Below are positions 3,199 through 63,674 of a DNA stretch of 64,000 nt, piece after piece. Under the pieces are notes generated by a model. The model did no database searches. It saw nothing but the letters and a program-made list of their open reading frames with translations, and was not told the origin of the DNA. Within the stretch, counting starts at the first letter, position 1; each line of letters starts with the position of its first letter. The stretch spans positions 1,163,966 to 1,227,965 of the forward strand of contig CP060531.1 of the NCBI GenBank assembly GCA_016806715.1. Direction: 5' to 3'. Made by a program: the position numbers and the translations under genes. Source of the DNA: Thermoplasmatales archaeon. GTDB lineage: Archaea; Thermoplasmatota; Thermoplasmata; Thermoplasmatales; Thermoplasmataceae.

Positions 3199-3319
3199 GT
3201 TCCTTAACAGGTATTTCATAAATTCCCGTAAGTTCACGATCCAGTCGCAATGAAGCTCCGACCTTCAGGGTGGAGAGGAATTGCGACACTCTTTTATATT
3301 GAATTTATATATCAATATT

Positions 3320-7099: not shown

Positions 7100-7588
7100 A
7101 TGGAACGAAATAATCTCATGGCCGTGGGTGCCTTCGTCGTAATCTCAATTTTACTTGTCGGAGGTCTTGAGTTCTATAACATCAATGAAAAACCTGCTGC
7201 TAATCCAATAACGCTGACAAGAGTCGATGTGACCCAGTCATGGCTCCATTACGACTCCAGTAATCAAACCGTATATGCTAATATGACTACAGAGGAGTAT
7301 TTTATTAACTTTACGATAACGCTGAGTGGAACGGTTCCAAATGGGACCTTGGTAGTGGTACCTCCATCCGTGCACAATTCAACAGCCAATGTTACTTATT
7401 CAGCGTTCAGTGGATACAATAGCAACTTTAACTTTGTTAATGGGCTTTACACTAAGAACCTGAGCTTCGCAATAAACAGCTCGGTATACGATAACATGAC
7501 AATGGGTCATGAATATTCCGCCTTCATAACAGTGGAAAGCGGTGCCTACGCATCAAACATACTCAGTGTAAAGCTAATGCGATCCTGA
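7100..7588 (+). CDS. Membrane-anchored extracellular protein, unknown function
   Basis: 162 aa. One N-terminal hydrophobic segment (residues 7-23, MAVGAFVVISILLVGGL) is followed by a beta-rich, Asn/Ser/Thr/Tyr-rich domain with many N-glycosylation sequons (NQT, NMT, NFT, NGT, NST, NVT, NLS, NSS). Probably exported and held by the N-terminal segment. I do not recognise a family. It faces the first ABC-exporter locus (7769-12871), which encodes proteins of similar composition, so it may belong to the same surface system. A TATA-like run precedes the gene. Confidence 0.65.
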   Translation: MERNNLMAVGAFVVISILLVGGLEFYNINEKPAANPITLTRVDVTQSWLHYDSSNQTVYANMTTEEYFINFTITLSGTVPNGTLVVVPPSVHNSTANVTYSAFSGYNSNFNFVNGLYTKNLSFAINSSVYDNMTMGHEYSAFITVESGAYASNILSVKLMRS

Positions 7589-7768
7589 GACTCACGTTCC
7601 ACCGAAAGGTGTAACCAAGCCGACAATTCCAGAAATTCAAGCCAAAATCCTTTAGTCGTAGGTACATTACACTCATGAGCCTACAGTAGTAACTATTCTG
7701 TCAGAATGAATGAGTCCTCTTCGCGTTCCAGACATGCGGTAATAATGCACTTGGAAGAATTGAAGCAA

Positions 7769-8374
7769 CTATACTGGAGTCCTACTGAATTTTCGGAATT
7801 CAATGATAGAAATGCTCGTGAATGCAGCAACGGCAACTACAGAAGCCTCAAATGGAATCACATAGAAAGTCGATCCTGGCCTGCTCACAGTGGTTATGAA
7901 TTTACCCGATATGTTTGCCATTACTTTCGGAATCAAGTTTGCTAATGTCATATTGGTTTCTATGCGTACGACAAAGCTTAGCACTGGGGTTATATTGTAA
8001 TATCCGGGGCTTAGTGATAAGGCTGTGGAACCGAAATCTCCATATGTCAGGTTGTGAAACTCAAGCTTTTGGCTATTGGAAGTTGAATTAATGTAAACTG
8101 TGTAGTTTTCGGTAATTGGTCCAATAGAACTGTTAATCATGAGCCCGTCATAATAAAAAATTTTCCCTCCATTTCCATAGGATACAATCTGAAGGATTGC
8201 AGGTGAGCCGAGAGGAATGTTTGCCCGAGATGTATTGTTGTGGAGAACGATTTGGGACGGAGTATCTATGGAAAAAACAGAACCTGCAGAACTGGAATAA
8301 TACCACATACCAGAGAAGAGGACAAGAAATACCATCGAAATAAGTGCCAGTCTCACAAACTGCTTCGATTTCAT
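7769..8374 (-). CDS. Exported protein with N- and C-terminal membrane segments (ABC locus 1)
   Basis: 201 aa. Hydrophobic segment at residues 8-27 (LALISMVFLVLFSGMWYY), an extracellular beta-rich region with several sequons (NNT, NSS, NYT, NST, NLT, NMT, NIS), then a second hydrophobic segment near residues 172-192 and a short basic tail. Last gene of the locus, 4 nt after the permease stop codon. Family unknown. The other intact loci have no counterpart in this last position; its architecture is like the second genes of loci 1, 2 and 4. Confidence 0.65.
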   Translation of the reverse strand: MKSKQFVRLALISMVFLVLFSGMWYYSSSAGSVFSIDTPSQIVLHNNTSRANIPLGSPAILQIVSYGNGGKIFYYDGLMINSSIGPITENYTVYINSTSNSQKLEFHNLTYGDFGSTALSLSPGYYNITPVLSFVVRIETNMTLANLIPKVMANISGKFITTVSRPGSTFYVIPFEASVVAVAAFTSISIIEFRKFSRTPV

Positions 8375-8378
8375 CTAA

Positions 8379-9107
8379 TTACCTCCTTCCTGCTCTTAAG
8401 CTTCTCCTCTCTATGACTATCAGTGAACCGAGAAAAAGTAACAGCCCAAATATCAGTTCAATAGACCCGCCAATTATAAATACAATGGAAAATGGGTCAG
8501 AAAGCCCTATCGAGGAGAATCCCACGAAGATATATTGAAAGAAGTTATTCTCCGCACCAGTGCCGAACAGTGAGGGAGCGATAAACATGAAAAAGACAAC
8601 AAGTGAACCCGTTGAAACCACTGCATTTTTTGAAGCAGTCGCCAGCAAGAAGCCAATTCCACTTACAAAGATCGACAGACACAGAACAAAGTATGCGATT
8701 TCCGTTAGCGCTAAAATAGATCCTGTAAACGTGAAGAGGTATACGTTTACGGTGAAAATGGCAGTCATTATTGCAGTTGAATAAAATACTGCCCACAGAA
8801 ACATTGAAGCGACGACCCTTCTGGCGCTGTAACCGAATGATACCAGGGTGAGAATTTTGCCATTCTCTATAAATGTGCTAAGCATAAACACGTTAAGTGA
8901 CAGAATCAGTATATAAGGGAAATAAATAGATCTCAGTATTGAACCGGTGAAGGTATAGATATCTACAGCGGTGTTTCCGGGCTGTATTCCAAGCAAGTAG
9001 ATTACCGAGTAATCGGCTATGAAAGCTGCAAACGCTGCAAGAAATTCCACCAAGAAGTATGGATCCATCTCAAGACTTATCAGTCTGCCAAGCGTGAATT
9101 TATTCAT
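8379..9107 (-). CDS. ABC-2-like permease (ABC locus 1)
   Basis: 242 aa integral membrane protein with about six hydrophobic segments (around residues 17-38, 55-75, 95-125, 130-160, 165-185, 205-232) and little soluble sequence, the pattern of ABC-2 type exporter permeases. It overlaps the ATPase gene by 8 nt (start 9107, ATPase stop at 9100), so the two are translationally coupled and probably form one transporter. Substrate not visible; the neighbouring exported proteins are candidates. Confidence 0.75.
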   Translation of the reverse strand: MNKFTLGRLISLEMDPYFLVEFLAAFAAFIADYSVIYLLGIQPGNTAVDIYTFTGSILRSIYFPYILILSLNVFMLSTFIENGKILTLVSFGYSARRVVASMFLWAVFYSTAIMTAIFTVNVYLFTFTGSILALTEIAYFVLCLSIFVSGIGFLLATASKNAVVSTGSLVVFFMFIAPSLFGTGAENNFFQYIFVGFSSIGLSDPFSIVFIIGGSIELIFGLLLFLGSLIVIERRSLRAGRR

Positions 9108-9969
9108 AGAGAATCCTCAACTGGGACGGCAAAGAGAAAAACGACAGTATCCTGACACCCTGTTCGGAGGCTATGCGTACGCACGATCCTATGTCAAGGG
9201 AAGTTACCAGTGCTCCATTCGTAATAACGGCAGTGGAATCCAGTGTCTTGATCGAAGTCAGCATCAATGTGTTGCTATCAGTACGCAGTACGCTAACGGA
9301 GCTGGATGACCAGGTTCCGAAAGAATAATCAACGGTTCTGCCAGCAAGAATAAGCAATCCATCGGAAATCGTAAGTATCTCGTCAAAGACATGAGTCGAG
9401 ATTAGGAATAGACTCATCGACTTTCTTGACTTGTCTCTGATCGCTGTCGAAATGAGTGAACGTTTGTGAACATCGACGTTAGAATTTGGCTCATCTAGAA
9501 TGAATATTGACGAGTCTGCGCTTAGATGGCATGACAGCATTACAAGTTGCATCTCACCCATGCTGAGTGACTGAAATGTGGAAGAGAGAACTCGATCAAC
9601 TCCAAAGAGATGCATGTAATCAATTATTCTTTCTGAGCCTGTACCTTTGAAATGTGAGAACCAGTATATATGCTCCCTTACAGACGCGCCTCCAAGCACT
9701 GACGGTTTCTCAGGCATAAAAGAAACCTCCTTCATTGCCGTTGCATGCGATTTCCAAGAATCCATGCCAGAGATCATCACGTGACCAATGTCGGGTTTTA
9801 TTATCCCATTTATTAGGTAGAAGAGAGTACTCTTGCCTGATCCGTTTTCACCGGCCAGCACGTTAATGCCATTAGCAAGGCGGAAGTCCACATCCTTGAG
9901 TATTGTTCTTTTTCCGAATGATTTCGTGAGTTTATTGCATACAATAGTTTCAGTGTTACGAGCTGACAT
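9100..9969 (-). CDS. ABC transporter ATP-binding protein (ABC locus 1)
   Basis: 289 aa. Walker A GENGSGKST (about residues 40-48), signature LSMGEMQ (about 135) in place of LSGGQ, Walker B IFILDEPNSNVD and H-loop STHVFDEI. The first ~215 residues are the nucleotide-binding domain; the remaining ~75 form an extra C-terminal domain of unknown role, with no membrane segments. It starts 2 nt after the stop of the preceding membrane-anchored protein and overlaps the permease, so the four genes are an operon. Confidence 0.9.
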   Translation of the reverse strand: MSARNTETIVCNKLTKSFGKRTILKDVDFRLANGINVLAGENGSGKSTLFYLINGIIKPDIGHVMISGMDSWKSHATAMKEVSFMPEKPSVLGGASVREHIYWFSHFKGTGSERIIDYMHLFGVDRVLSSTFQSLSMGEMQLVMLSCHLSADSSIFILDEPNSNVDVHKRSLISTAIRDKSRKSMSLFLISTHVFDEILTISDGLLILAGRTVDYSFGTWSSSSVSVLRTDSNTLMLTSIKTLDSTAVITNGALVTSLDIGSCVRIASEQGVRILSFFSLPSQLRILYE

Positions 9970-9970
9970 G

Positions 9971-10819
9971 CTATTTTCTCCAGCGTCTAGATTGTCTTCT
10001 ATAAAGTGAGATTATATAAAGCGATCCTACAATCCACATCACTGCAACAATAGCTGCGTACTGCACAATGTAATGGGAAACGTTGAGAGATAGCACAGAA
10101 GAATTAGTGCTCTGGAGAGTAATATAAAATAATGTCACGCTAGATACAGAGGATGAACCAAGTATAGTAGATATAATACTGGAATTACCTGATAGCAGCA
10201 AATGGTTAAGGAACGCGCCTGAATTTGTGTTAATATAATATGCCGAATTTGCCGATAAAATTTTGGAAAGATTACCGTAGTAACCTGTTGGCTGCAAGGG
10301 TACGTTAATCATATTGACTTTCTCAGAGTATGAATAAAGTATACCTTTACTCACATTTATAGACGAGTATGCGTTAGAAGCGCCCGTAAACTGTGCCGTT
10401 TCACTGAACACATTAACAAACTGGCCGTTATGATCAAGCGCCCCTGGGAAAAATGAGTCATACAGTTTTGATGAGCTACTAACATTTGTTGAGTACGATT
10501 TTGCTAATAAGACCTGTGAATCTGTTGGTTGCCCATAAATTTTAACGGAAAAAAAAGCGTGTCCATTAGTTATGGTTATATTCAAATAGCTGGTTGCGAG
10601 CCCGAGATTTCCTATATCATTACTTATTGTATTATTATGATAAAAGTTTACAGGGCCCATTGCCCCTATTTCATATTCGAACGTGGTCCCGTTAGCCTGT
10701 GTCCCGTTTAAGAGAGAATGATTCATGTTGTACGCCTGTAGAAGGGGTGTAAATAAAGCAAATGCAGAAATTATAGCCAGCACAACGATAAACATTGCCA
10801 AAAAACTTCTTAGCTTCAT
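9971..10819 (-). CDS. Exported protein with N- and C-terminal membrane segments (ABC locus 1, second gene)
   Basis: 282 aa. N-terminal hydrophobic segment (residues 6-27), long extracellular region rich in Ser/Asn/Thr with many sequons (NHS, NGT, NNT, NIT, NVS, NLS, NSS), then a C-terminal membrane segment (residues 250-272) and a basic tail (RRQSRRWRK). The same layout is found at the same position in loci 2 and 4. Not recognised. It may be a partner that receives, holds or processes the secreted lead protein, but that is inference. Confidence 0.7.
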   Translation of the reverse strand: MKLRSFLAMFIVVLAIISAFALFTPLLQAYNMNHSLLNGTQANGTTFEYEIGAMGPVNFYHNNTISNDIGNLGLATSYLNITITNGHAFFSVKIYGQPTDSQVLLAKSYSTNVSSSSKLYDSFFPGALDHNGQFVNVFSETAQFTGASNAYSSINVSKGILYSYSEKVNMINVPLQPTGYYGNLSKILSANSAYYINTNSGAFLNHLLLSGNSSIISTILGSSSVSSVTLFYITLQSTNSSVLSLNVSHYIVQYAAIVAVMWIVGSLYIISLYRRQSRRWRK

Positions 10820-15472: not shown

Positions 15473-16120
15473 TTGAAAGAAAGTAATTTAATCCATAATA
15501 TGAGAAAAAAGACTGAACGAGAGACAATAGAACTTCCATCGAAGATAGGTTCTATGAATAACAACGAACGGATTGTGTTTGGTAAAAGGGTAGTATCCGG
15601 TGAAGTTCCTAAAGAGTTTATTCATTCTGAAAACAAGAAAATTATTGCAATTTCGTTGATAGTGCTTTTTGGTATAAGCGTGACTTTCGGTTTGCTTTTC
15701 TCGTATCAGCCACCTCACTCAACATCTCCGGCTGCAACTCCTGCTGATACTGTGTACTATGGAAATGAGTACACTGTGAGTGAGTCAGGGCATGATACTT
15801 TTGGATTGTGGTTGGGAACTGCTACCACCGTTTGGACGTTCGGGTATGATACATCGGTAGGGCAGTTCGTTCTCAATGGTAATTCTTTTTTCTCCGCAAC
15901 AGAGACTCACGCATGGTATGGTTCAGCTTCAATTGACGGTACTACCAATACTCCGACCATCTCCGAACTGAGTAGTTCCACACAATACACAATTAGTGGA
16001 AGTACTGGTACTATAATTAACAATGTGGTTGCCCAGAGCAATGATATGGTGGGAACATATGGATATCTACTAGGCCAATCATCTACGGAGATTTTCTTTG
16101 TCATTCCCCTTGACGATTAG
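15473..16120 (+). CDS. Lead secreted protein of ABC locus 2
   Basis: 215 aa. A charged N-terminal stretch (about 55 residues) precedes one membrane segment (IIAISLIVLFGISVTFGLLF, residues 57-76). The rest is an extracellular Ser/Thr/Gly/aromatic-rich beta-type domain ending in EIFFVIPLDD. Cysteine-free. Unknown family. The GGAGG sequence at 15461-15465 supports a TTG start at 15473; ATG at 15500 (MRKKTERE) is an alternative. First gene of the best-preserved module. It resembles the lead proteins of loci 1 and 4 in architecture, not obviously in sequence. Confidence 0.65.
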   Translation: MKESNLIHNMRKKTERETIELPSKIGSMNNNERIVFGKRVVSGEVPKEFIHSENKKIIAISLIVLFGISVTFGLLFSYQPPHSTSPAATPADTVYYGNEYTVSESGHDTFGLWLGTATTVWTFGYDTSVGQFVLNGNSFFSATETHAWYGSASIDGTTNTPTISELSSSTQYTISGSTGTIINNVVAQSNDMVGTYGYLLGQSSTEIFFVIPLDD

Positions 16121-16152
16121 AAATTAATTTAAACCCATGTAATGTATAGCCT

Positions 16153-17010
16153 TTGATGGTGAATCGTAAGACTTACGGTAAGAGGGTTTCCAAACGAAGA
16201 AAGGGGACCTCAAGGTACTCCACATATTTTTTCATTTTTTTCATTCTTTTTGGCATAGTCATTAATACAATTCCAATGTTTTCTTTTTATTTTGGCACCT
16301 ATACTCACGATACAGTACACAGTCCGACAGCAAGCGGTGCTGAACTCAATTATTACGGCATCTATGGGTTTGAAGCTGAACCGAATCTTACTGGCTATGG
16401 GTATGGATTTAAAGTTTCAGTAGATGGGCTTGGAAATGATCAGTATCATGTTGCAATAACGGTCTATAACATTTCTGGAACACATGTTGGTCTGAACGAA
16501 AAGAACTTACAGAAAGCTCCCTTTATAGGGAGTACAATTACGAAAATCTACTCGAGCAATGTTAACATAAGTTATCAAGACGACCCATTTCTGCAGTTTA
16601 TTCTCCCGGCAAACACAACCCCTGTAAGCAGCTATATGACTATGAAAATAACTGGGAGCACCAGAGAATACGCAGCTGAGGCATATCTTGGTTACCCATC
16701 ATACCTGAACACAACAACTACGGCAAGTGGCAGTTTGGTTAATTATGTATCAGTTGATGGTCATTATACTCTGGCCAACTTTGAATACACCGGTGACTTT
16801 TATAGTTTCTTCAGCACTCTGTATCCCGGGGCAAAGGCATTTACAGTACCTGTTTTTTCTACTATTATCTTAGGTTCTGGAAATGTAGCGATCAGCCAGA
16901 ACTGGCTTGGCTGGTTCTCATACGGTTTTGATATCTCATACCCGGCAAATGTTGCACTACTTGCAGTTGGCGGGGTCCTGGGCATTATAAGATTCAGAAA
17001 AGGGTTTTGA
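16153..17010 (+). CDS. Exported protein with N- and C-terminal membrane segments (ABC locus 2, second gene)
   Basis: 285 aa. Very basic N-terminus (NRKTYGKRVSKRRKG), membrane segment at about residues 24-46 (FFIFFILFGIVINTIPMFSF), extracellular beta-rich domain with few sequons (NIS, NTT), and a C-terminal membrane segment (NVALLAVGGVLGII) with a basic end (RFRKGF). Positive residues at both ends place both termini inside. Lies 32 nt after the lead gene and overlaps the ATPase frame start, so part of one operon. Not recognised. Confidence 0.68.
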   Translation: MMVNRKTYGKRVSKRRKGTSRYSTYFFIFFILFGIVINTIPMFSFYFGTYTHDTVHSPTASGAELNYYGIYGFEAEPNLTGYGYGFKVSVDGLGNDQYHVAITVYNISGTHVGLNEKNLQKAPFIGSTITKIYSSNVNISYQDDPFLQFILPANTTPVSSYMTMKITGSTREYAAEAYLGYPSYLNTTTTASGSLVNYVSVDGHYTLANFEYTGDFYSFFSTLYPGAKAFTVPVFSTIILGSGNVAISQNWLGWFSYGFDISYPANVALLAVGGVLGIIRFRKGF

Positions 17011-17015
17011 TATAT

Positions 17016-17837
17016 ATGCGAATAAAATTCAGGAACCTTAGTGTATCGTTCAGAGACTCGGTTGCCCTAAACAATGTTGATTTGGATATTGACGCAAAAA
17101 GGGTTGTCCTTTTGGGGCAAAACGGTTCCGGAAAGACAACACTTATGGCTGTAATGTCCGGGTTATTGCGTCCAACTAATGGGGAGGCATATATCAACGA
17201 TACTTGCCCATACAACGAACGGGAAATTTCTTTGGATCAATTATCATACATGTTTGGGGTTTCAAGATATCCCTATAGAATCAGGGTAAGGGATTTCCTG
17301 CGATTTCTGCAGAAAACTAGGTCATGCGGGGATGTCGCAGATTTAGCATTTTACGCGGAAATCCTCGGGCAGATCATGGATAAGAGGATGAATGAACTTT
17401 CATCCGGTGAGACCAAGCTAGTTGCCGTGATCAATGCCATTTACTGCACAAGGAGTACACTGATACTGGACGAACCCTTTGCTTTCCTGGACGCATTCAG
17501 AAGTTCAAAACTAATAGATCAACTGGTTAAAAGTGGAAGAGAATATGTTTTCTCAACACATATTCCGGAAGAAGCGGAAGGAGTGGGGGATTACTTCGTC
17601 CTGCTTGACAGGGGAGAGATTAAATGGAACGGAACGTTTGACGACCTCTATCGGGATGAGATCTTTGAGGTGTACATTAGCCCCGGATACGTACCAGAAT
17701 TTGGGTTCATTTTCAGGTATGGCAACGTTTGCCTTGTAAAGGGCGAGAGTGAAAAATTATATGAAAGCATGAAGAGAGGAGAAATTCGTGGATTCAGACA
17801 GGCCGGTGTCAGAAGAGTTTACTATGAAACTAGGTAA
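17016..17837 (+). CDS. ABC transporter ATP-binding protein (ABC locus 2)
   Basis: 273 aa. Walker A LGQNGSGKTT (about residue 33), signature LSSGETK in place of LSGGQ, Walker B LILDEPFAFLDA, H-loop STHIPEEA. The last ~70 residues extend beyond the nucleotide-binding domain. ATG at 17016 is preferred; a TTG at 17007 overlapping the previous stop is possible. The 3' end overlaps the permease start by 14 nt, indicating coupling. Confidence 0.9.
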   Translation: MRIKFRNLSVSFRDSVALNNVDLDIDAKRVVLLGQNGSGKTTLMAVMSGLLRPTNGEAYINDTCPYNEREISLDQLSYMFGVSRYPYRIRVRDFLRFLQKTRSCGDVADLAFYAEILGQIMDKRMNELSSGETKLVAVINAIYCTRSTLILDEPFAFLDAFRSSKLIDQLVKSGREYVFSTHIPEEAEGVGDYFVLLDRGEIKWNGTFDDLYRDEIFEVYISPGYVPEFGFIFRYGNVCLVKGESEKLYESMKRGEIRGFRQAGVRRVYYETR

Positions 17838-18519
17838 TGCATTAAGATGGTACTTCAAGGATACATTTCCGCATCCGCAGACGGAGATAGTTTTGTTCGT
17901 TCTTGTAGCCATTCAATATTTATCATTGAAGGACCCTGTCTTTGACCCAAGTACTAGCATTTACCTGGTATCAGAATTCCTAGTGATACCTTTCATGGTA
18001 ATGTTCAATGGACTGGTATACCTAAAGGAGGACGAGATAACAATCTTTGAGATAACGTTGATAGGGAGTTGGAGGGCGGTCGCTGCAGGCAGGATTTTTT
18101 CACTTTTATTGAGTTTTATACCGTTCCTTGCAATAGAAGCTATTTTCTTTTATTTCTTCTCATCAATTACTGTGTTTTTGATTTTAGCTATGACCGTGGT
18201 TATGGAAAGTGCAGTTGTTATGCTTGCTTCTGTTATTCCGAGTAAGCCTGGCGCCCTCATTGTGATCCTGTCTACAACAATCATGCTGCCCCTTGCATCA
18301 TTTGTTGTACTTCAGAGTTATACGTCGCTTTCCATTGCAATCTCACCCGCAATGGGCGCAATACTCTACCTACTATCACCTCTTTTAACATATATGCTGT
18401 TTAACAATGGGATTGTGCCTATTGGTCCTTATTGGGGAATAGCTGTAATAGGCACGTTCTCTATCATGGCTGGATTTCTTTATACGCTTATATTCGGAAA
18501 GCTGCAATTTAAACCATGA
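17824..18519 (+). CDS. ABC-2-like permease (ABC locus 2)
   Basis: 231 aa with about six hydrophobic segments and a short N-terminal amphipathic part (MKLGNALRWYFKDTFPHPQ). The EDEITIFEITLIGSWRAVAAG stretch between segments 2 and 3 resembles the coupling region of ABC-2 permeases, and the locus 1 permease has a comparable segment (ENGKILTLVSFGYSARRVVA). ATG at 17824 is chosen; an upstream GTG at 17788 would add 12 residues inside the ATPase gene. Last gene of the operon. Confidence 0.75.
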   Translation: MKLGNALRWYFKDTFPHPQTEIVLFVLVAIQYLSLKDPVFDPSTSIYLVSEFLVIPFMVMFNGLVYLKEDEITIFEITLIGSWRAVAAGRIFSLLLSFIPFLAIEAIFFYFFSSITVFLILAMTVVMESAVVMLASVIPSKPGALIVILSTTIMLPLASFVVLQSYTSLSIAISPAMGAILYLLSPLLTYMLFNNGIVPIGPYWGIAVIGTFSIMAGFLYTLIFGKLQFKP

Positions 18520-54712: not shown

Positions 54713-54903
54713 AACTTAGCACTCCAGATAGTGAATTGCCCCACCTCGCGGAAAAGGCTTCCTGTTTTTGATTTATTAACGGGGGGTACTCCGTTCCATT
54801 TTTTGCACCATTCCCGCTTCCGTTTCTGCACAGGCATGAATTTGGATCGCACAGACCCTATAAGTTCAGCATTTTTGTGATCAATATAACGGTTTCGCTA
54901 TTT

Positions 54904-55388
54904 TTGGTGTGGGACACTATTCTAAAATCGACTCATATTGAATAAATTGTGCCACACATTTGTGCAGAATAGTACATTATTGATCCTGTCATCCATCTTT
55001 TGTGCTATGTTCCAACCAAGCATCTTCTTGGCCGCTGCGAATCTAGGTTCGGAATTGCTTCTCTGATGGTACTGTTCCAGGTATTTCGTGGTATCCTCAA
55101 CAAACTCCTTCATGGTGATTTCCACTTCTGCGAGCCGTTGAGTGTGGCATTCTTCTTCGGGATCACGAAGACCTTTGTGTCACCAAGTTTATCCATGTAC
55201 GACGGGGATAAATAATACCTGCCAAGGGGGAGCGAATCCAGGATCATGTCCGTGGATTCGAGAAGACTCATTGCACGATCATAGGCTCCTCTCTCGGATT
55301 TCATGTAAGATACGAAGGCGATGAACATTTCACAACGCTCTATCAAATACTGCCCGTGAGTCGTCAACCATTTTCCGTTCTTCTGCAA
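54904..55388 (-). pseudogene. Transposase C-terminal remnant with IS end
   Basis: Minus-strand frames VFVIPKKNATLNGSQKWKS and TMKEFVEDTTKYLEQYHQRS continue across one frameshift near 55110, then KKMLGWNIAQKMDDRINNVL and VWHNLFNMSRF with a stop at 54922-54924. The pattern is the end of a DDE transposase I cannot assign to a named family. The upstream half is missing: the remnant meets the ABC permease gene at 55389. A near-identical stub of the same end lies at 57017-57118. Confidence 0.65.
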
Positions 55389-56195
55389 TCATAGCTGTCT
55401 CATTGCCTCAACATCCTGTGGTTTAATCTTTTTGATTATATAAACGTCTAAAACGAATATAACAAGTAACCACAGAATGATACTTATCAGGAGTGTCACC
55501 CAGTTTAACGTAATTGGAGAAGTTGAAACGAAGCTGTTAACAGGTTGGGTATTAGTATATAAAGAAAACAGAAGACTTGGCATTGAATTCCACGGTGAGA
55601 TATAAACCATAAGTTCCGGGACCGACCCAAAAATCATCTGATAGGATAGGACAAAGACTAGCAGCATAGGGATGAAAGAGAGGAATGTTACAGATTTTAC
55701 GTTAGAATAGGCCAGTACCAGTGAAACCAATAAAATCGCCAGGAGCATGAAAAACGTCCCAACCAGGATATCCAGCAGAAATGTCTCGAGGAAGGATGTG
55801 TATCCCGGAAACACATTGACGCCAGATGCAAGATAGAACATTGCCCCAGTGAACAGGATACTAAAGACAGCTAAGAAAATTGCAATCGATATCCATGCTA
55901 TGATAAGGTCTAACAGATATCTTGTTCTTGATAATTTGGAAAATTTGAACGAAAAAACGAGGGCATTCGCAGACCAGCCCAGTGACATCATTATAGTTAC
56001 CGCTATTGAGGAAAATGAAATTAGCACTATTATGGAAAACCATGCTGCCGTAACACCCATGGCGTCGGTTGCTGTCAGGGAACTCCTGTCAATTATGAAT
56101 GCGCCTAACACTGCCCATATAAAGCTGAAAAAAACTCCCCAGAACCATAGATGTTTATTAGATATCAAAGCTCGAAAATAATACTTTGCGATCAT
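55389..56195 (-). CDS. ABC-2-like permease (ABC locus 3)
   Basis: 268 aa with about six hydrophobic segments (residues 14-35, 48-68, 98-122, 136-160, 165-187, 235-255). No soluble domain beyond a short extracellular loop (MFGSVPELMVYISPWNSMPS). It starts 4 nt inside the ATPase gene end, so the two are coupled. Its stop is directly next to a transposase remnant, yet the C-terminus (KKIKPQDVEAMRQL) looks natural. Confidence 0.75.
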   Translation of the reverse strand: MIAKYYFRALISNKHLWFWGVFFSFIWAVLGAFIIDRSSLTATDAMGVTAAWFSIIVLISFSSIAVTIMMSLGWSANALVFSFKFSKLSRTRYLLDLIIAWISIAIFLAVFSILFTGAMFYLASGVNVFPGYTSFLETFLLDILVGTFFMLLAILLVSLVLAYSNVKSVTFLSFIPMLLVFVLSYQMIFGSVPELMVYISPWNSMPSLLFSLYTNTQPVNSFVSTSPITLNWVTLLISIILWLLVIFVLDVYIIKKIKPQDVEAMRQL

Positions 56196-56983
56196 CTCAA
56201 CACCTCTTGAATGGCATTGTCTAGATCCAGTGATGAGGAGAGCGGGGTGTCACCACTGTCCATGGTTATGGAAAATGTACCGTAATTTGTCCGTATGGTC
56301 GAGAGCGGTTTTGGAGCCTCCCCTTTCGTCAGGTATAACCTATTTATATCGCTGGAATTGAATTTTCCGTAAAGTTTCCCCTCTATGATCAGATACAGAT
56401 CCCAGTCTGAAAGTGATTTAAGGGCGCCAAAGTCATGAGTGTTGATGAGCAGACTTCCCTTGAATCTGTTAAGATCCTCTATGGTCATAATCCGCCTCTT
56501 CACATCCAGTGTTTCAAAGGGCTCGTCAAGAAGAGCGAGTCTGTATCCAATATTCAGTGCCATGATGTTGCAGAAGATCTTGTCCTGACCTGTACTCAGC
56601 TCCATTGTTCTCTTGTTCAGGATATTAGATAAATCATACCTTTCTATCTGCTTGAAGGCATTTGTCGGGTCAATGCCTGCCATCGAACAGTACATTTCTA
56701 TCTTTAATTTTATCGGAAGGTCCAGCAGTCTGTAGATCTGATCCAGATTGGCTGCGACACCGACTATATTCGATATGGTTTTCAGGCTCTGACCAAATAC
56801 CTTCAGATCCCCTGCAGTTATTTGAGAAAGCCCGATAATTCCTTTCAACAATGTTGTTTTACCCGAGCCATTCGATCCCACAATTGCCATCTTTCCCATG
56901 TTGAGCGAGAGGTTTATACCGGATAGAATATCCTTTTTGATTCCCTTATATGAAAGATTTAGGTTCTTTAATTCAAGATCCAT
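56192..56983 (-). CDS. ABC transporter ATP-binding protein (ABC locus 3)
   Basis: 263 aa. Walker A VGSNGSGKTT (about residue 36), signature LSTGQDK in place of LSGGQ, Walker B LALLDEPFETLD, H-loop NTHDFGAL. The C-terminal ~55 residues lie outside the nucleotide-binding domain, as in the ATPases of loci 1, 2 and 4. Its first 20 codons and its promoter recur, diverged, at 63492-63595. Locus 3 keeps ATPase and permease intact while the upstream genes are eroded. Confidence 0.9.
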   Translation of the reverse strand: MDLELKNLNLSYKGIKKDILSGINLSLNMGKMAIVGSNGSGKTTLLKGIIGLSQITAGDLKVFGQSLKTISNIVGVAANLDQIYRLLDLPIKLKIEMYCSMAGIDPTNAFKQIERYDLSNILNKRTMELSTGQDKIFCNIMALNIGYRLALLDEPFETLDVKRRIMTIEDLNRFKGSLLINTHDFGALKSLSDWDLYLIIEGKLYGKFNSSDINRLYLTKGEAPKPLSTIRTNYGTFSITMDSGDTPLSSSLDLDNAIQEVLR

Positions 56984-57002
56984 TATAATGAATATAAGGA
57001 TA

Positions 57003-57012
57003 ATATATATAT
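57003..57012 (-). promoter_or_regulatory. TATA-like box of the locus 3 ATPase
   Basis: TATATATATA centred about 25 nt before ATG 56983. The corresponding sequence near 63580 (TATATACTACC) precedes the truncated copy at the same spacing. Confidence 0.55.
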
Positions 57013-57016
57013 AACT

Positions 57017-57118
57017 GGGGGCGGGGCACTATTCTAAAATCGACCCATATTGAATAAATTGTGCCACACATTTGTGCAGAACGAGGCATTTTCGATCCAG
57101 TCATCCCTCTTCTGAAGA
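57017..57118 (-). repeat. Second copy of an IS end, transposase C-terminal stub
   Basis: About 100 bp closely matching 54904-55005 on the same strand, encoding FCTNVWHNLFNMGRF with a stop (compare FCTNVWHNLFNMSRF). Two same-direction stubs now bracket the ATPase-permease pair of locus 3. Confidence 0.75.
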
Positions 57119-57151
57119 GGCATGTTAACGCGGTTAACGAAAATCGCAATC

Positions 57152-57553
57152 TTACTTAGCTACCTGTTTACGTTCCCATTCCCTAAATCTTCTTTTGTAG
57201 TTTAATATATTCAAGTTTTTCATTTCACTCTCAGATAGCCCGTATTTTTGTTTCAGTCTTTTAGCAGCTAAACGTCCCAGAGAATTCATTGCAATAAAGG
57301 ACCAAAATGCACTCAAACCCCCAACGATTCCAAGAATGTTCTTAAGATTCCAGATATAAGAATTCCCTGGGGCCAAACTCGTGGCGTAAGTTCCATAGAG
57401 GAAAAACAGGATTAAGATTGAAACTACGACCGTTGGTAGGCAAATAGACTTTAGTATCTCCTTCCGTGTAGCCTTCAGCGCAATAACTTCTTCCAAATAA
57501 AGTAGGTAAAGGAATACAGTTAGAACGACAAGAAGAGTTACGATTATTCCCAT
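57152..57553 (-). CDS. Membrane protein of ABC locus 3, unknown function
   Basis: 133 aa with three hydrophobic segments (residues 2-22, 34-55, 70-93) and a charged C-terminal helix (LKQKYGLSESEMKNLNILNY). No family recognised. It lies about 10 nt after the end of the truncated gene at 57563 and is cut off from the ATPase by an IS stub. It occupies the second-gene position of the module but is shorter than, and unlike, the proteins there in the other loci. Confidence 0.6.
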   Translation of the reverse strand: MGIIVTLLVVLTVFLYLLYLEEVIALKATRKEILKSICLPTVVVSILILFFLYGTYATSLAPGNSYIWNLKNILGIVGGLSAFWSFIAMNSLGRLAAKRLKQKYGLSESEMKNLNILNYKRRFREWERKQVAK

Positions 57554-57562
57554 AAATACACC

Positions 57563-57655
57563 TCAGACTACGAATTGACCCCATCCTCCGGAGGGGTTTG
57601 CCATATACACCTTGTTGTTGGGTTGGTCCCATATTGTGAGATTAGATTTGCTTCT
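57563..57655 (-). pseudogene. C-terminal remnant of an exported protein, locus 3 lead position
   Basis: Minus-strand frame ends SNLTIWDQPNNKVYMANPSG then GWGQFVV and a stop at 57563. The Asn/Trp/Tyr/Gly-rich composition and the sequon NLT resemble the exported proteins of the other loci. It is cut off upstream by the IS3-type remnant, so its N-terminus is lost. Too short for a family call; position 10 nt before the next gene supports that it was the first gene of locus 3. Confidence 0.4.
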
Positions 57656-57689
57656 TAGCAATCATCACCCCTTCTATTATATTTTTCTT

Positions 57690-58855
57690 CTATTCTTCAT
57701 ATGTATCTCTCAGTGCTCTGTAATTTATTGCTGAATGCAGCCTCTCATTGTTGTAGAATGCAATGAACCTGTCTATCGTGTCCATTTTATCCTCAAAGGG
57801 TGAGAGCTCGAATCTTCTTATCACTTCATTCTCCAGGATGGAATTATACGATTCTATTTGTATGTCCTCTCTTGTGTGGTAGGATGAATCCTCTCATGTG
57901 GAATGCAGAGGGACGAGAAGAATAGTTCTTCTAATCTTACCCACAAATTGAGTGCCATTGTCGATTCTTACACGCACCCCAGATATATTGCATAAATGCC
58001 TCTATCCATGAATGCAAAATCCATCGCCATCCTCACGTCGTGCGAAGTGCAGTGTTAGCTAAGGTGCTTTTCCACGATCTTTCTGGAAAAGCAGTCTATT
58101 ATGACAAAGAGGTATGCCGTTCCGTTCTCTCCCGAGATGCACTTTGTATTCATCTCTCTGGCCCCATTGGGTGCATTGACATATACTACGGAATCAACAA
58201 CCCTCTTTGCAGGACTGCGGTAATTGTATCTGTGGTTCAGGAGATTATTCTCCTACAGGATACGGAAGACCTTCTTCCCGTTGATCTGATAGTCGGAGTG
58301 ATGCAAGTACTTTGTGACCTTCTTTTAGTCATAACAGACGAATTCCCTCCTGAGCAGCTCCCAGATCTCTTTCAGGATCTCCGTGTCGGGGATCTGGATG
58401 CTCTCATTTCACGTTGAGAACATCGTTGTACTTTGATTTCATACCCTCTCCAGGCCCACCATTAGGGGTTTCCGGTAATAGGTACTCTCAGGAATCTGGA
58501 GAAGATCTAGAATCCCGAAGATCATGAGACTCCTATTTCTGTACTCGTCGGTCAGGACTGCCGCCTCCTTGTTTTTAATGTGCTTCCTGCAGCAATGATA
58601 CTCCAAGTTCCTTCTCTGCAAGCATCTTTATCAACCTTTCGTTCTCCTTCCTGAGTTTCCTTATGCTGGGATCGGCTTTCCCTGTTCTCGATCTGAGGCC
58701 ATCCACTCCATAGGTGTGTAATATTTCCTTTCAGGTGTAGAACATGGATGGATCGACGCCGTATTTCCTGGAGGTTTCCACGACCTGGTCCTTCTCCCTG
58801 ATCTCGCTGATAAGGGCAAGCTTTTCCTCTGCTTTCCAACGCCTTCGTTCGGTCA
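57690..58855 (-). pseudogene. IS3-type insertion sequence, degenerate orfA/orfB
   Basis: OrfA-like start: MTERRRWKAEEKLALISEIR, then QVVETSRKYGVDPSMFYT and a TGA where a Trp codon is expected (YTWKE), continuing KADPSIRKLRKENERLIKML, the leucine-zipper-like helix. OrfB end at the other side: FIAFYNNERLHSAINYRALR with stop at 57690, the IS3 integrase-core C-terminus. The middle (about 57840-58550) has many stops and shifts. An IS3-family remnant, inactive. Confidence 0.75.
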
Positions 58856-58972
58856 TTGTGCCCCCAAGACCCCATTCAATTCATTTCTTAATATATTAGT
58901 ATAATTATTAGGCAATCTTCTCCAATAATTTAATGGGTCAGTGCACCACAAAGAGATCAAGGGAACCTCTTA

Positions 58973-59668
58973 TTATAAGAATTTATAAAAGACACGCCAT
59001 CCGATTAAGTAAGTGAGTAAAAATGATATACTTGCAGAAACACATATTGCGGTAAAAAAAATCCAATTAAGTACAGTACCAAAACCCTTGTCGCCAAGAA
59101 GCAGCAGAGGGAACAGATAACTGACTTCAATAGTTGAAACAGATGTTAATATTATATAGAATATGCCAAGAAAAAACAGTATAGAAAAAAGCTCCGAAAA
59201 AATTCCGAACCTTGATAATAAAATGACAATGCATCCTAAAGCAACATTGTAGACTATAATGAAAAATATAGAAAGAAAAAGAAGATGGGTATCAAAACTC
59301 GATGGATAACTCAATACAATCCACGCAAAGCACAATCCAAAAATCAAAAAAGGAATAGCAAAAAGGACTTTGACCATCAATTTAGATATAAAATAGGAAT
59401 AGCCATTCAACTGGGGATAAGAAATATATGTTTTAATAACTCCGTCCGACAAGTCGTTTTTTACGCTCTCAGTGGTTGAAATAGATACATAGAGGCCACT
59501 GAGAACAAAATAAAAAAAGAAGAACGACAAAAATTTCATACTTTCAAGAGCAAAGTTGAATCGGATATAGAGGGAGAGTCCAATTGCCATTAGGATCAAA
59601 ACGATGCCAAGTTGGAACTTTTTTACTCTCTCAAATTCAAGAGTCATTAGAGGTTGAATTAAACTCAC
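58973..59668 (-). CDS. ABC-2-like permease (ABC locus 4)
   Basis: 231 aa with about six hydrophobic segments, starting with a short cytoplasmic helix (MSLIQPLMTLEFERVKKFQL). The segment STTESVKNDLSDGVIKTYIS between helices 2 and 3 resembles the corresponding loops of ABC-2 permeases. Overlaps the ATPase gene by 32 nt. Last gene of the operon. Confidence 0.75.
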   Translation of the reverse strand: MSLIQPLMTLEFERVKKFQLGIVLILMAIGLSLYIRFNFALESMKFLSFFFFYFVLSGLYVSISTTESVKNDLSDGVIKTYISYPQLNGYSYFISKLMVKVLFAIPFLIFGLCFAWIVLSYPSSFDTHLLFLSIFFIIVYNVALGCIVILLSRFGIFSELFSILFFLGIFYIILTSVSTIEVSYLFPLLLLGDKGFGTVLNWIFFTAICVSASISFLLTYLIGWRVFYKFL

Positions 59669-60488
59669 TCCTTATCTTCTCATCCATTTCCTGTATTTTA
59701 ATATTAGAAATGCTACCATTGTACCCTCTTAATGTGTCGTATAGTAGATTGAAATTTTTTGGAAATGCAATTACTCTTTTACCGTCTATTATATTCTCGA
59801 TGTTGTTTGCTTTTAAAAAAGTAGACAATGCAGCGAAATCGTTACCAATCAATTCAACAGAAAGTTTATCCTTTCCTGGTTCAAGTAATTTTAACGTGCC
59901 ATTGTTTCTTAACATCAATATTTTATCTGAAACAAGGGTTAATTCTCTTATGTCATGTGAAGAAATCAAGAATGAAACCCCTCTTGATTTTGACTCTCGT
60001 ATATAAGAAAGAATTGCGTCTACTGTTGCCGGGTCTATGTTGGAGAACGGCTCATCCGCTATTACCAGTTTTGCATTCTGCATAGATGCTACTAATAGTG
60101 CCAACCTTTTTAAATAGCCGGCCGATAAATTTCCTATTTTTTCATCTAGAACATCTTTAATTTTAAGCAGGTCAGACAGATGTATCTGAGAGAGTGTGCC
60201 AGGCAGCTTAGCAATGAATTGCAGATACTTCTGTACTGTTACTTCTTTTGGGAATGATGGTCTTTCTAGGACAACAGATATTATAGACTTTCCATTTATC
60301 GATGGTAGATAGTAATTTATTTTTCCAGCACTGACGCGCCTAAGACCTGAAATTAACTCAATAAGGGTAGTCTTTCCTGCGCCATTAGGACCAATCAGTC
60401 CAGTCACTCCCTGAGAGATTTCTAGATCCATTAATGGGATTACTTTCTTTCGACCGTATGATTTCTCTATCCCGTTGATTTTAACCAA
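59637..60488 (-). CDS. ABC transporter ATP-binding protein (ABC locus 4)
   Basis: 283 aa. Walker A IGPNGAGKTT (about residue 33), signature LSAGYLKRLALL in place of LSGGQ, Walker B LVIADEPFSNIDP, H-loop SSHDIREL. A C-terminal ~75 residue extension (KLSVELIGNDFAALSTFLKA...) is present as in locus 2. More lysine- and isoleucine-rich and AT-richer than the housekeeping genes, suggesting transfer. Confidence 0.9.
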   Translation of the reverse strand: MVKINGIEKSYGRKKVIPLMDLEISQGVTGLIGPNGAGKTTLIELISGLRRVSAGKINYYLPSINGKSIISVVLERPSFPKEVTVQKYLQFIAKLPGTLSQIHLSDLLKIKDVLDEKIGNLSAGYLKRLALLVASMQNAKLVIADEPFSNIDPATVDAILSYIRESKSRGVSFLISSHDIRELTLVSDKILMLRNNGTLKLLEPGKDKLSVELIGNDFAALSTFLKANNIENIIDGKRVIAFPKNFNLLYDTLRGYNGSISNIKIQEMDEKIRSEFNSTSNDS

Positions 60489-60524
60489 AAGCGTCAGTTA
60501 ACCAGTCCCCTCTTAGTATTTGGC

Positions 60525-61427
60525 TCATTTTGATCCCTCAGTCTTTTGTCTCTTCTTCCGACGATAAAAGAACAAGCCTAATAAAATAACAGTAGCAATC
60601 AAAATAATCGGTAATCCCACAATGATCCCAACGACAAGGTATACGCCTATAACATAAAGCCAGTTTATTTGCCCAATGCTAAAGTTTGTTTTTGTGAGTG
60701 TTAGTGAGAAAGGAGGGTGAAAATATCCTGTTGATCCTTTAACCGACAAATTCAGTATGTACGATAAGACTGGATCAGTTCCTTCAAAGTTATACAAAAG
60801 CTTTGAGCCAAAACCAAATTCATAAATCGGTGGGAAACTATAATCCTTGTAGGGTTCAGTGGACGATGCAGACACATTCGCGAGATAGAGATCATTATAA
60901 TTAACATAACCTGTGAAGGTAGGGTAAACCATGTACACCTCATGGTATTTTCCCAAGCCAGAACTTGTATCCAGGACTTGTTGTACTTGGCCTTTATTTG
61001 TGACATTTATGTAAACAGAATTATAGTGGGATATGACATGTGAGTTGTAGATAAATGGCAAAGTCACTGCAGAATTGTTCCAGATGTATCCTGATTTAGA
61101 AATTGTGAAATCCGCTGTCTCGTTAATGGTTCGGTTGTCTGGAAAAAATCCATCTCTTCTGGCAAATTTAATCTCAACGTTTACAGTAATAATAACTTGG
61201 CTCGGTTCCTTAGTAAAATTCAAGGTTCCATTGATGTTTGAACCGTTCAAATAGTAGTCACCGAAAAAGGAGGATTGCGACGTCCCATTTCCGCTTGTTT
61301 CAGCAGTTGCCAATTGGGATCCAGACATGTTCGGTGTAAATATCATAGCAAAAATTAAAAATGAAGCCAAAATTGAAAATATAGGGATGATTGAAGGTAT
61401 TCTGAATAAATCTCGCAAGGTGACCAC
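60525..61427 (-). CDS. Exported protein with N- and C-terminal membrane segments (ABC locus 4, second gene)
   Basis: 300 aa from GTG 61427. N-terminal membrane segment (IIPIFSILASFLIFAMIF), a large extracellular beta-rich domain with many sequons (NMS, NGT, NGS, NFT, NRT, NET, NNS, NVT, NVS), a strong C-terminal membrane segment (WLYVIGVYLVVGIIVGLPII plus following LLGLFF) and a basic tail (YRRKKRQKTEG). Same layout as the second genes of loci 1 and 2. GTG 61427 is 2 nt after the lead-gene stop; an upstream in-frame start at 61487 would overlap it by 58 nt. Confidence 0.68.
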   Translation of the reverse strand: MVTLRDLFRIPSIIPIFSILASFLIFAMIFTPNMSGSQLATAETSGNGTSQSSFFGDYYLNGSNINGTLNFTKEPSQVIITVNVEIKFARRDGFFPDNRTINETADFTISKSGYIWNNSAVTLPFIYNSHVISHYNSVYINVTNKGQVQQVLDTSSGLGKYHEVYMVYPTFTGYVNYNDLYLANVSASSTEPYKDYSFPPIYEFGFGSKLLYNFEGTDPVLSYILNLSVKGSTGYFHPPFSLTLTKTNFSIGQINWLYVIGVYLVVGIIVGLPIILIATVILLGLFFYRRKKRQKTEGSK

Positions 61428-61429
61428 TT

Positions 61430-61924
61430 TTAGGAAACGGTTCCAGATCCATGAATAAAGCTGAACTCTCCCCCAATTCCAAACCAAATTTCAGAATAGA
61501 ATGGACCACTTAAATGAAAAGAACCAATGCCTATGTCTTGGCTGCCGTCACCATAAGCATAGTAGGTGCCATTGTTGTTGTTAACGATACCGTGACCTGT
61601 GCTAACAGTCCAACTTCCAAAAAGCCACCAAGGTGTTGTGCCAACATTCCAATATGGCGGATTTTCATAACTTACTACGCTTCCAGATTGGGAGGTACTC
61701 CAGTGTTCTTGAAGGGTTGTGGTGTACAAGAGTAGACCTACTAGGTCATATGTACCAATGGTCAAACTTTCAACGTGGGAATACGTTGTAGAAGCTGGAT
61801 TTCCAAATGTTCCATTGCCTGCATCCCCCTCCACTTCAATCAAAGCAGCTAACGATAGCCCAACAACCAAAGTTGTCACAACTATAGCTAACACTATGCG
61901 ATTTATATTATTCTTTTTTCGCAT
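61430..61924 (-). CDS. Lead secreted protein of ABC locus 4
   Basis: 164 aa. Short basic N-terminus (MRKKNNINR), membrane segment (IVLAIVVTTLVVGLSLAALI, residues 10-29), then an extracellular Gly/Ser/Thr/aromatic-rich domain with sequons (NGT). Ends in a glycine-rich, aromatic stretch (FYSEIWFGIGGEFSFIHGSG). No cysteine. Family unknown. A TATA-like box at 61943-61955 lies 25 nt before the ATG, so the operon is probably transcribed from here as a leaderless message. Confidence 0.68.
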   Translation of the reverse strand: MRKKNNINRIVLAIVVTTLVVGLSLAALIEVEGDAGNGTFGNPASTTYSHVESLTIGTYDLVGLLLYTTTLQEHWSTSQSGSVVSYENPPYWNVGTTPWWLFGSWTVSTGHGIVNNNNGTYYAYGDGSQDIGIGSFHLSGPFYSEIWFGIGGEFSFIHGSGTVS

Positions 61925-62132: not shown

Positions 62133-62140
62133 TTATTATT
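62133..62140 (+). promoter_or_regulatory. TATA-like box of the DUF2080-type gene
   Basis: TTTTATTA centred about 24 nt before ATG 62161, consistent with a leaderless transcript. Confidence 0.5.
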
Positions 62141-62160
62141 GGATATGCACCGTATATCCT

Positions 62161-62313
62161 ATGAAGAAGAGACCGCTGACGCCTGCCACGAGACTGGATA
62201 TAGATGGCATAGAGGGGTATTTCATCAGAACAGTCAATACATTTGGAAACAGTGCCAAGATAGACTGTCCAAAGGAGTATCTTGGAAAGACTGTCTATGT
62301 AATAGTTGCATGA
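62161..62313 (+). CDS. DUF2080-type transposase-associated protein
   Basis: 50 aa, too short for usual gene calling. Begins MKKRPLTPATRLDIDGIEGY, then FIRTVNTFGNSAKIDCPKEY and LGKTVYVIVA. The GNSAKIDxPKEYxGKxVYV pattern is that of DUF2080 proteins encoded just before the transposase in many archaeal insertion sequences. Frame intact with its own TATA box. It matches the orphan at 18759-18911 over its whole length. Confidence 0.7.
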   Translation: MKKRPLTPATRLDIDGIEGYFIRTVNTFGNSAKIDCPKEYLGKTVYVIVA

Positions 62314-63396
62314 ACAGAGTCGGGTTGCTTGCTTCCTGAGGCCCTTGGAAAATTTCACCAAAGATTCTGTTGCACTGAAGCACTACACACAATATCTGAA
62401 CGGATTTCACTACAACAGGGACCTGCTGAATGCTGCTGGCGCAAACACATACGGGGAGACTGTTAGCAGCAGGTCTGTTTTCCTGTATAGTGCAGTGGAG
62501 AATTCCACTGTTGATACCGTGAAGAAAATCCGGTTTACTAGAATGTCAGCAATAAGGTGACCCACAAGCATGGACGAAAGGAGACACATAATAGCCTTTG
62601 ACTACACAACAGAGGACTTCTACGGTGACAGGCACGGCTTGTGTATACATGGTTGAACCAGTGATCATGGCGTTACCAAAAAATACTCGTACCTTACTGC
62701 GAACATTGTCAATAAGAATCTGAGGCTGCCAATATTATACATCCCTTCACCAATGGACGGCGACATACCCGGGGGAGGCATCTGGCATACTTCGGAGAAT
62801 GAGCAGCAACACTCACGATATTGATCTTGTGCTGTTCGACAGGGGATTCTACTCCAAGGAAAACAGCCTTGCACTCCCCGGTATGTGCGTGCCATATCTC
62901 ATATTCGTGCTGAACCATAAGTCTGTGAAAAGCTAACTCGGCTCCATGATACCTGAGGTGAAGAAGATCATTCTCCATAAGTTCTCCTTCTACCGCGATG
63001 GTCAAGAAGGTTGTTGGGGGCATAAGCCTTGTATTCCCGAGGCAGATTTATGATCACCGCCAATATGAGTATTACAACAGGGGGGTGTTTGCAGCAAACG
63101 TTTCGAATACGAATCTTGAAAAGATTGTCAGGCAGTACAAGGCACGGTGGCGCATAGAGACCATGTTCCGGGTGCAGGATGAATACCGCATAAATACCAA
63201 AAGCAAGGACATTCGCGCTCGGTACTTCCGGTTTGCATACGAGCAGATGGTTGAATCAATCTGGTATCTTTTCTACCATGAGGAGGTGAGTTTCAAGAAA
63301 TTTCTCACTGAGCTGAGCAGTGTGCTCAGCACGCTGGCGGATATGAGGAGAGAAGGGGAACAACCAATTCATAGGACATTCTGGGTTCATGAATAG
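62314..63396 (+). pseudogene. DDE transposase of the DUF2080-type element, degenerate
   Basis: The 5' two thirds hold short fragments in several frames with many stops. The last third (62998-63396) is an open frame: ISLVFPRQIYDHRQYEYYNR, then IVRQYKARWRIETMFRVQDE and RINTKSKDIRARYFRF, the YKxRWxIE...F...K block that contains the catalytic glutamate of IS4-superfamily transposases. Disrupted, so not functional. Confidence 0.75.
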
Positions 63397-63491
63397 TGAG
63401 CTCGCTGTCTGCGTTCTCAAGCGATTCAGCAGCGCAAGCAACCTAAAAACTTAGCTTAACTTGGAGAAACTGCGTGTTGAACGAAGGGTTA

Positions 63492-63595
63492 ATACTGAAT
63501 AGAATATCATTTTTGATTCCTTTATATGAAAGATTTAGGTACTTTAGTTCTAGGTCCATTATAATGAATATAATGGTAGTATATACATTACCTAG
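63492..63595 (-). pseudogene. 5' stub of a fifth ABC ATPase gene with its promoter
   Basis: About 100 bp aligning with 56920-57015. The start codon at 63559 is followed by MDLELKYLNLSYKGIKNDIL (compare MDLELKNLNLSYKGIKKDIL in locus 3). Homology ends around 63492, where the transposon-derived sequence begins. The upstream TATA-like sequence is also kept. No Walker motifs remain. Confidence 0.8.
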
Positions 63596-63674
63596 TATGT
63601 GACTCTATTTTTGAACCAGCTGGAAACCCTGATGTTTTTTTATCGTAAAAAATAATTTGGAAGAAAGACAATAT

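What the first reader, a model, noticed from the sequence alone, without database searches (positions are those of the whole stretch)
55389..57655. ABC locus 3: ATPase and permease kept, lead gene and spacing eroded by two insertion sequences
From the 5' side on the minus strand there is a C-terminal remnant of an Asn/Trp/Gly-rich exported protein (57563-57655), a 133-aa membrane protein, an IS stub, then an intact ATPase-permease pair with its own TATA box. As in locus 1, the lead gene is lost and the transporter kept. In bacteriocin-type systems the exporter or immunity pump commonly outlives the toxin gene; this pattern would fit that, but other explanations remain.
Basis: partly seen in the sequence, partly recalled or inferred. 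Interest (0 to 1): 0.6.

Follow-up and report, generated by a model that had tools for sequence, protein, structure and literature searches.

The report
Transporter beside an orphaned immunity-like gene
What looked like one damaged transport locus is two unrelated gene sets pushed together by insertion sequences: an intact membrane transporter that has lost its regulator, and the surviving membrane gene of a hitherto unnamed, toxin-immunity-like gene pair found across a family of acid-loving archaea.

Summary
The listed features exist, but they are not one locus. The genome matches Ca. Scheffleriplasma hospitalis (1,959,588 bp). The ATPase-permease pair (55389-56983) is the front half of a four-gene operon (ATPase, permease, ~220-aa membrane protein, winged-helix regulator) found in seven other genomes of the family, never beside an exported lead gene. 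Here gene 3 is cut after 20 codons, the regulator's orthologue is missing from the genome, and an IS end replaces the palindrome that sits 5' of the TATA box in relatives. The transporter lost its control genes, not a lead gene.

The lead remnant and 133-aa protein (57152-57625) are a separate module: a ~400-aa secreted protein followed by a 100-160-aa three-helix membrane protein. The secreted family shows N/C-terminal recombination (95% DNA identity over ~720 nt, then sharp divergence), its C-terminus co-varies with the partner (r = 0.75), partners occur in tandem, and the secreted gene is broken more often than the partner. This resembles a polymorphic toxin/immunity pair with an orphaned immunity-like gene; toxicity is untested. 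'Immunity outlives toxin' may hold for the 133-aa gene, not the pump.

The parts
56192..56983 (-). ABC-type ATPase, gene 1 of a conserved four-gene operon; intact
   Evidence: PF00005 6.9e-15; 59-65% identical to the operon ATPases of G017 and G016; clade support 99/97; third-position excess of substitutions, 176 of 283 against G016
55389..56195 (-). ABC permease, about 6 TM, gene 2 of the operon; intact
   Evidence: 57-60% identical to the G017 and G016 permeases; no Pfam or NCBIfam hit
55333..55392 (-). 5' stub (20 codons) of operon gene 3, the ~220-aa membrane protein, overlapping the permease stop by ATGA as in relatives
   Evidence: MIAEERKMVDDSRAVFDRAL aligns with MISEDEKYLKESRSLIEKAF of G016
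54899..55332 (-). 5'-truncated IS (DDE transposase 3' end) that replaces the rest of gene 3 and gene 4
   Evidence: 54899-55181 is 90% identical to G000:C1:1049339-1049622; transposase-like frame 55110-55388. The inner edge near 55330 is approximate
57000..57014 (-). TATA-like element of the ATPase gene
   Evidence: sequence; region kept in the second copy
57023..57114 (+). Solo end of the same IS, in the same orientation as 54911-55002; takes the place of the palindrome found upstream in relatives
57152..57553 (-). 133-aa membrane protein (2-3 TM), immunity-like partner; intact
   Evidence: 65% identical over 51 aa to the protein after the lead fragment in G048, dN/dS 0.24; 35% to the partner of the full-length lead in G014
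57563..57625 (-). 3' remnant (21 codons) of a secreted ~400-aa lead protein
   Evidence: 83% identical over 18 aa to the lead C-terminus in G048; DNA homology continuous with the 133-aa gene
57626..58937 (-). Degenerate IS3-like element that truncates the lead gene; ends inferred from imperfect CCAT...ATGG inverted repeats
   Evidence: ends approximate to a few bases
63475..63591 (-). Second copy of the ATPase 5' end (29 codons, TATA region); its degenerate palindrome lies at 63602-63616
   Evidence: 76% aa identity, DNA alignment, operator scan

Best explanation
The interval holds two unrelated modules joined by insertion sequences. (A) An ABC transporter: ATPase plus permease of a conserved four-gene operon that encodes its own likely regulator. 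IS insertions removed its third gene and its regulator and replaced the palindrome upstream of its TATA box, so the pair is probably expressed without its former control (inferred). (B) The remains of a secreted-protein/membrane-partner module. In relatives the first gene makes a ~400-aa protein with an N-terminal signal-like helix, a fairly constant N-terminal domain, a glycine-rich hydrophobic hairpin and a variable Trp-rich C-terminus; the second makes a matching three-helix membrane protein. The likeliest mechanism is a bacteriocin-like, probably membrane-active toxin released by the cell, with the membrane partner giving the producer self-protection. In the window the toxin-like gene is reduced to its last 21 codons while the partner stays intact, as expected if retained immunity protects against kin that still make the toxin. 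Shown: gene content, loss, recombination, co-variation, constraint on the partner. Inferred: secretion, toxicity, immunity, loss of control.
For: A: orthologous operon in seven genomes with no lead gene; tree; gene-3 stub; orthologues of the regulator score 1e-45 to 1e-52 in operon genomes, best in this genome 4e-9 from a different protein; GTTCAANNNTTGAAC 51-55 nt upstream in five orthologues, GTCT-AAATTT-AGAC-type in two, absent in the window copy. B: full-length lead plus partner in G014, G009, G086, G059, G057, G020, G006, G091, with the partner just 5' of the lead in G069; G014 and G009 leads 95% identical in DNA to nt 723, then divergent, while G009 and G086 are alike in C-terminus and partner; Mantel r = 0.75, p = 5e-5 over 12 loci, and no N-terminal effect once the C-terminus is controlled (partial 0.08, ten loci); tandem partners in G059 and G009; broken lead with intact partner in the window, at G000:C1:600763-601798, twice in G014 and once in G089.
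Against: No toxicity or immunity data. No known toxin domain, no structural match (best Foldseek E 0.1, model pLDDT 64). G087 has an intact lead but a stop in the partner, the opposite of the expected order. In G069 the partner lies 5' of the lead. The broken/intact imbalance (5 to 1, or 7 to 1 with orphan partners) is small. Co-variation could partly reflect shared ancestry or transfer as a block. Operator function is inferred from position and symmetry only.
Confidence: 0.62

Rival explanations
1. One reading: one ABC export/immunity locus whose toxin-like lead gene was lost while the pump remained.
For: ATPase-permease intact, lead remnant upstream on the same strand; other ABC loci in the window do carry exported lead genes.
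Against: Seven orthologous operons have no lead gene; the lead family lies beside a membrane partner and without an adjacent ABC pair in the full-length loci read; ATPase not related to loci 1, 2, 4 beyond the superfamily; an IS end separates the modules.
Confidence: 0.04
2. The secreted protein and its membrane partner are a recognition or adhesion pair (self-nonself surface module), not toxin and immunity.
For: A hypervariable secreted protein plus subfamily-matched membrane proteins is also the pattern of the Thermococcales VARTIG modules, for which no toxin was found (PMC8416519); no toxin domain detected here.
Against: Small size (~400 aa), glycine-rich hydrophobic hairpin, frequent decay of the secreted gene with retained partner, and tandem partner copies fit toxin-immunity better.
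Confidence: 0.2
3. The 133-aa gene is a decaying leftover without function; survival is chance.
For: Region is riddled with IS; only 51 codons can be compared.
Against: Full-length frame; dN/dS 0.24 against G048; a second own-genome partner (125 aa) is also intact while its lead is ruined, dN/dS 0.33.
Confidence: 0.17
4. The ATPase-permease pair is itself decaying after loss of its partners rather than a working, deregulated exporter.
For: Two of four genes and the palindrome are gone; a second ATPase copy is a stub at 63475-63591.
Against: Both frames intact, motifs kept, TATA element kept, substitutions concentrated at third positions; but too little can be said about the time since the IS insertions.
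Confidence: 0.2

Closest known systems
Polymorphic toxin systems (Zhang et al. 2012, PMC3482391)
   Same: Constant N-terminus with variable C-terminus exchanged by recombination; matched partner gene next to it; tandem partner genes; displaced C-terminal tips.
   Different: No recognised toxin domain or processing peptidase; proteins short (~400 aa); membrane partner only; toxicity untested.
Archaeocins (halocins, sulfolobicins; PMC6759562, PMC12893001)
   Same: Secreted proteinaceous product of archaea; partner as candidate self-protection.
   Different: No sequence link was found through family libraries; direct comparison with halocin H4 or sulfolobicin sequences was not made; no inhibition data.
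VARTIG hypervariable modules of Thermococcales (PMC8416519)
   Same: Variable surface/secreted protein with subfamily-specific membrane proteins encoded next to it; no known toxin domain.
   Different: No Ig domain or large lead protein detected here; different order of archaea.
YtrA-type regulator plus membrane-protein operons (YtrASa of Sulfolobus acidocaldarius, PMC6746942)
   Same: Small winged-helix regulator in an operon with membrane proteins; (semi-)palindromic site at the operon's promoter.
   Different: Regulator here matches HTH_34/ArsR-like models, not GntR; binding not tested; operon encodes an ABC ATPase and permease.

Membership tests
Polymorphic toxin system | Diverse C-termini joined to a common N-terminus by recombination | tested here: met
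   G014 (L076) vs G009 (L133): 718 of 754 nt identical to nt 723, then about 40% aa identity; G009 vs G086 the reverse
Polymorphic toxin system | Cognate immunity gene adjacent, matched to the C-terminus | tested here: inconclusive
   Adjacent membrane partner co-varies with the C-terminus (Mantel r 0.75); protective function not testable
Polymorphic toxin system | Tandem (poly)immunity genes and displaced C-terminal cassettes | tested here: met
   Three tandem partners in G059 (L136), two in G009; C-terminal tips with partner in G048, the window and G014
Polymorphic toxin system | Recognisable toxin domain | tested here: not met
   No convincing Pfam, NCBIfam, PADLOC or PDB match; Foldseek best E 0.1
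Archaeocin (halocin/sulfolobicin) | Secreted protein that inhibits related archaea | not testable with these tools
   N-terminal signal-like helix seen; no assay
ABC bacteriocin exporter/immunity pump | Genetic association with a toxin or lead gene | tested here: not met
   None of seven orthologous operons has one
ABC transporter | ATPase with Walker A, signature and Walker B motifs plus a membrane permease | tested here: met
   GSNGSGKTT, LSTGQ, LALLDEP in 56192-56983; PF00005 6.9e-15; permease with six predicted TM stretches
GntR/YtrA-regulated membrane operon | GntR-family regulator | tested here: not met
   Operon gene 4 matches HTH_34 (1e-10 and 9e-13)

The most novel reading that the evidence does not exclude
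An undescribed family of polymorphic, membrane-active secreted toxins with three-helix membrane immunity proteins occurs across one Thermoplasmatales family, recombining N- and C-terminal halves, and its immunity genes persist as orphans in non-producers such as the host archaeon Ca. Scheffleriplasma hospitalis.
Probability: 0.5. Interest if true: 0.72.

Novelty: new variant of a known kind. Interest (0 to 1): 0.5.

Why it matters
Antagonism among extreme acidophiles is hardly known. A recombining secreted-protein/membrane-partner family without a convincing match in the Pfam, NCBIfam and PADLOC libraries searched would be a concrete, testable candidate for archaeocins in Thermoplasmatales. 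The window's genome matches a cultured strain that lives with an ectosymbiont (PMC8975820), so orphan immunity-like genes could be tested there. The case also shows how IS elements can place unrelated genes side by side and suggest a false operon.

Tried and rejected
First operator pattern search used the wrong spacing (16 instead of 15 nt) and is not used. A regulator search with one sequence gave an empty answer without a control; repeated as a profile with positive controls. First structure model with four sequences was poor (pLDDT 46); twelve sequences gave 64, still without a PDB match. dS between ATPase or permease orthologues is saturated, so no dN/dS ratio is given for them. No lead relatives in viral contigs. 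The mBio 2019 survey of archaeal toxins is not held, so overlap with its families could not be checked. Weak hits of the partner (HisKA_7TM, DUF350, a T6SS model) and of one lead (LeoB in PADLOC, 2e-4 over a hydrophobic stretch) were judged chance.

Full report
Setting. The window is G000:C1:1163966-1227965 of a 1,959,588-bp single-contig genome. That is exactly the chromosome length published for Ca. Scheffleriplasma hospitalis, GC 44.4%, the Thermoplasmatales host of Ca. Micrarchaeum harzensis (PMC8975820); window GC is 43.9%. The identification rests on this match.

The ATPase, the permease, the TATA-like element, the IS stub, the 133-aa membrane protein and the peptide are all there. They do not form one locus.

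Module A, the transporter. The ATPase is 65% and 59% identical to proteins of G016 and G017 and 34-40% to those of six further genomes. Whole operons were read in G016, G017, G005, G015, G007, G014 and G021. In all seven the order is ATPase, permease, a 214-242-aa membrane protein, a 111-124-aa winged-helix protein, and no exported lead gene stands before the ATPase. The fourth gene matches PF13601 HTH_34. A tree places the window ATPase in this set (99/97) and apart from the ATPases of the window's loci 1, 2 and 4.

Damage to module A. The permease stop overlaps the ATG of the next gene (ATGA) as in relatives, but that gene runs for only 20 recognisable codons before a stop. A 5'-truncated IS (54899 to about 55330) follows; its end is 90% identical to a copy at 1,049,339. 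A profile of the regulator scores 1e-45 to 1e-52 in the seven operon genomes but only 4e-9 here, from a different 240-aa frame that has counterparts in congeners, so the orthologue is lost. In five orthologues a perfect GTTCAANNNTTGAAC lies 51-55 nt before the ATG (0 of 1000 shuffles each); G016 and G017 have GTCT(G/A)AAATTTAGAC in the same place. In the window copy this position is occupied by the IS end 57023-57114 and no site is left. A second 5' stub of the ATPase (63475-63591) keeps the TATA region and a decayed site (3 mismatches, shuffle frequency 0.07). That the palindrome is the operator of the lost regulator is inference. Both remaining genes are intact with third-position excess of changes; synonymous sites are saturated, so recent relaxation cannot be excluded.

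Module B, the lead remnant and 133-aa protein. A search of 77 genomes of the family with the peptide and, separately, with the 133-aa protein met at one place in G048: an 83% match to the last 18 residues directly followed by a 65% match to the first 51 residues of the membrane protein, where the contig ends. DNA similarity is continuous from window 57620 to 57400. This shows that the remnant and the 133-aa gene belong together.

Full-length relatives. G014 has a 412-aa and a 435-aa lead, each followed by a 138-148-aa three-helix protein. A profile search of 117 genomes of the order found the family in 21 genomes (12 of 33 genera), all in the same family; some of these are weak matches to the signal region only. 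Intact leads with a partner stand in G009, G086, G059, G057, G020, G006 and G091 (downstream) and G069 (upstream). Named MAG records are Thermoplasmata isolates YF2.bin89, MAS3.bin138, HSP1.bin41, WH5.bin26 and UBA447. Leads share an N-terminal hydrophobic helix, a conserved middle, a glycine-rich hydrophobic stretch and a Trp-rich C-terminus. Neither protein has a convincing match in Pfam, NCBIfam or PADLOC.

Why toxin and immunity. First, leads of G014 (L076) and G009 (L133) are 95% identical in DNA from -31 to +723 and then fall to about 40% in protein; G009 and G086 (L134) differ in the N-terminal part but agree in the C-terminal part and in the partner. Second, over 12 loci the C-terminal similarity follows partner similarity (r = 0.75, p = 5e-5); in the ten full-length loci the partial correlation is 0.65 for the C-terminus and 0.08 for the N-terminus. 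Third, partners occur in tandem (three in G059, two in G009). Fourth, the lead is broken and the partner whole at five places: the window; 600763-601798 of the same genome (partner 125 aa); G014 L080 (in-frame stop); G014 L076, where a lead with a huge internal deletion fuses the signal region to the last ~35 residues ahead of an intact 143-aa partner; and G089. Orphan partners stand in G075 and G054. The reverse is seen once (G087, stop in the partner). Fifth, the 133-aa gene shows dN/dS 0.24 over 51 codons and the 125-aa one 0.33. These are marks of polymorphic toxin systems (PMC3482391), but also of hypervariable surface modules such as VARTIG (PMC8416519), so the toxin reading stays an inference. 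A structure model (pLDDT 64) has no PDB neighbour, which neither helps nor hurts.

Verdict. The finding's grouping is wrong; its general idea is half right for a different gene. The transporter is an ordinary ABC operon that lost its regulatory half. The neighbouring orphan points to an unnamed and testable archaeal gene-pair family.

Noticed in passing
G000:C1:600763-601798 (L139:3264-4706): Second ruined lead gene of the same family (stops and frameshifts) followed by an intact 125-aa three-helix partner.
   Followed up: yes
window 63475-63616: Second 5' stub of the ATPase gene with TATA region and decayed palindrome, next to the IS at 62140-63396; further on lies a PadR-like regulator gene.
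   Followed up: partly
window 7769-10819, 15473-18519, 58973-61924: Three further cassettes of exported proteins plus ABC ATPase and permease; their ATPases do not group with the one studied here. A similar set lies at G000:C1:1047000-1049200.
   Followed up: partly
L076 (G014) 7130-7696: Lead gene with a large internal deletion: signal region fused to the last ~35 residues, followed by an intact 143-aa partner.
   Followed up: yes
L073 (G048) 3182-4012: C-terminal part of a lead fused behind what looks like the start of a VapC frame after a VapB-like gene, then the partner gene.
   Followed up: no
L144, L145, L146, L147, L148, L149: Other 250-420-aa exported proteins that share only the N-terminal signal region with the lead family, each followed by a 101-126-aa membrane protein; may be further branches of the same kind of module.
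   Followed up: partly
PMC8975820 Table 2: The one host gene raised in co-culture with the ectosymbiont encodes a DUF1648 membrane protein, linked in that paper to a Bacillus toxin-immunity pathway; two repressed genes are ABC ATPases, one numbered Thermo_01181, which might lie in this window (locus tags could not be mapped).
   Followed up: no
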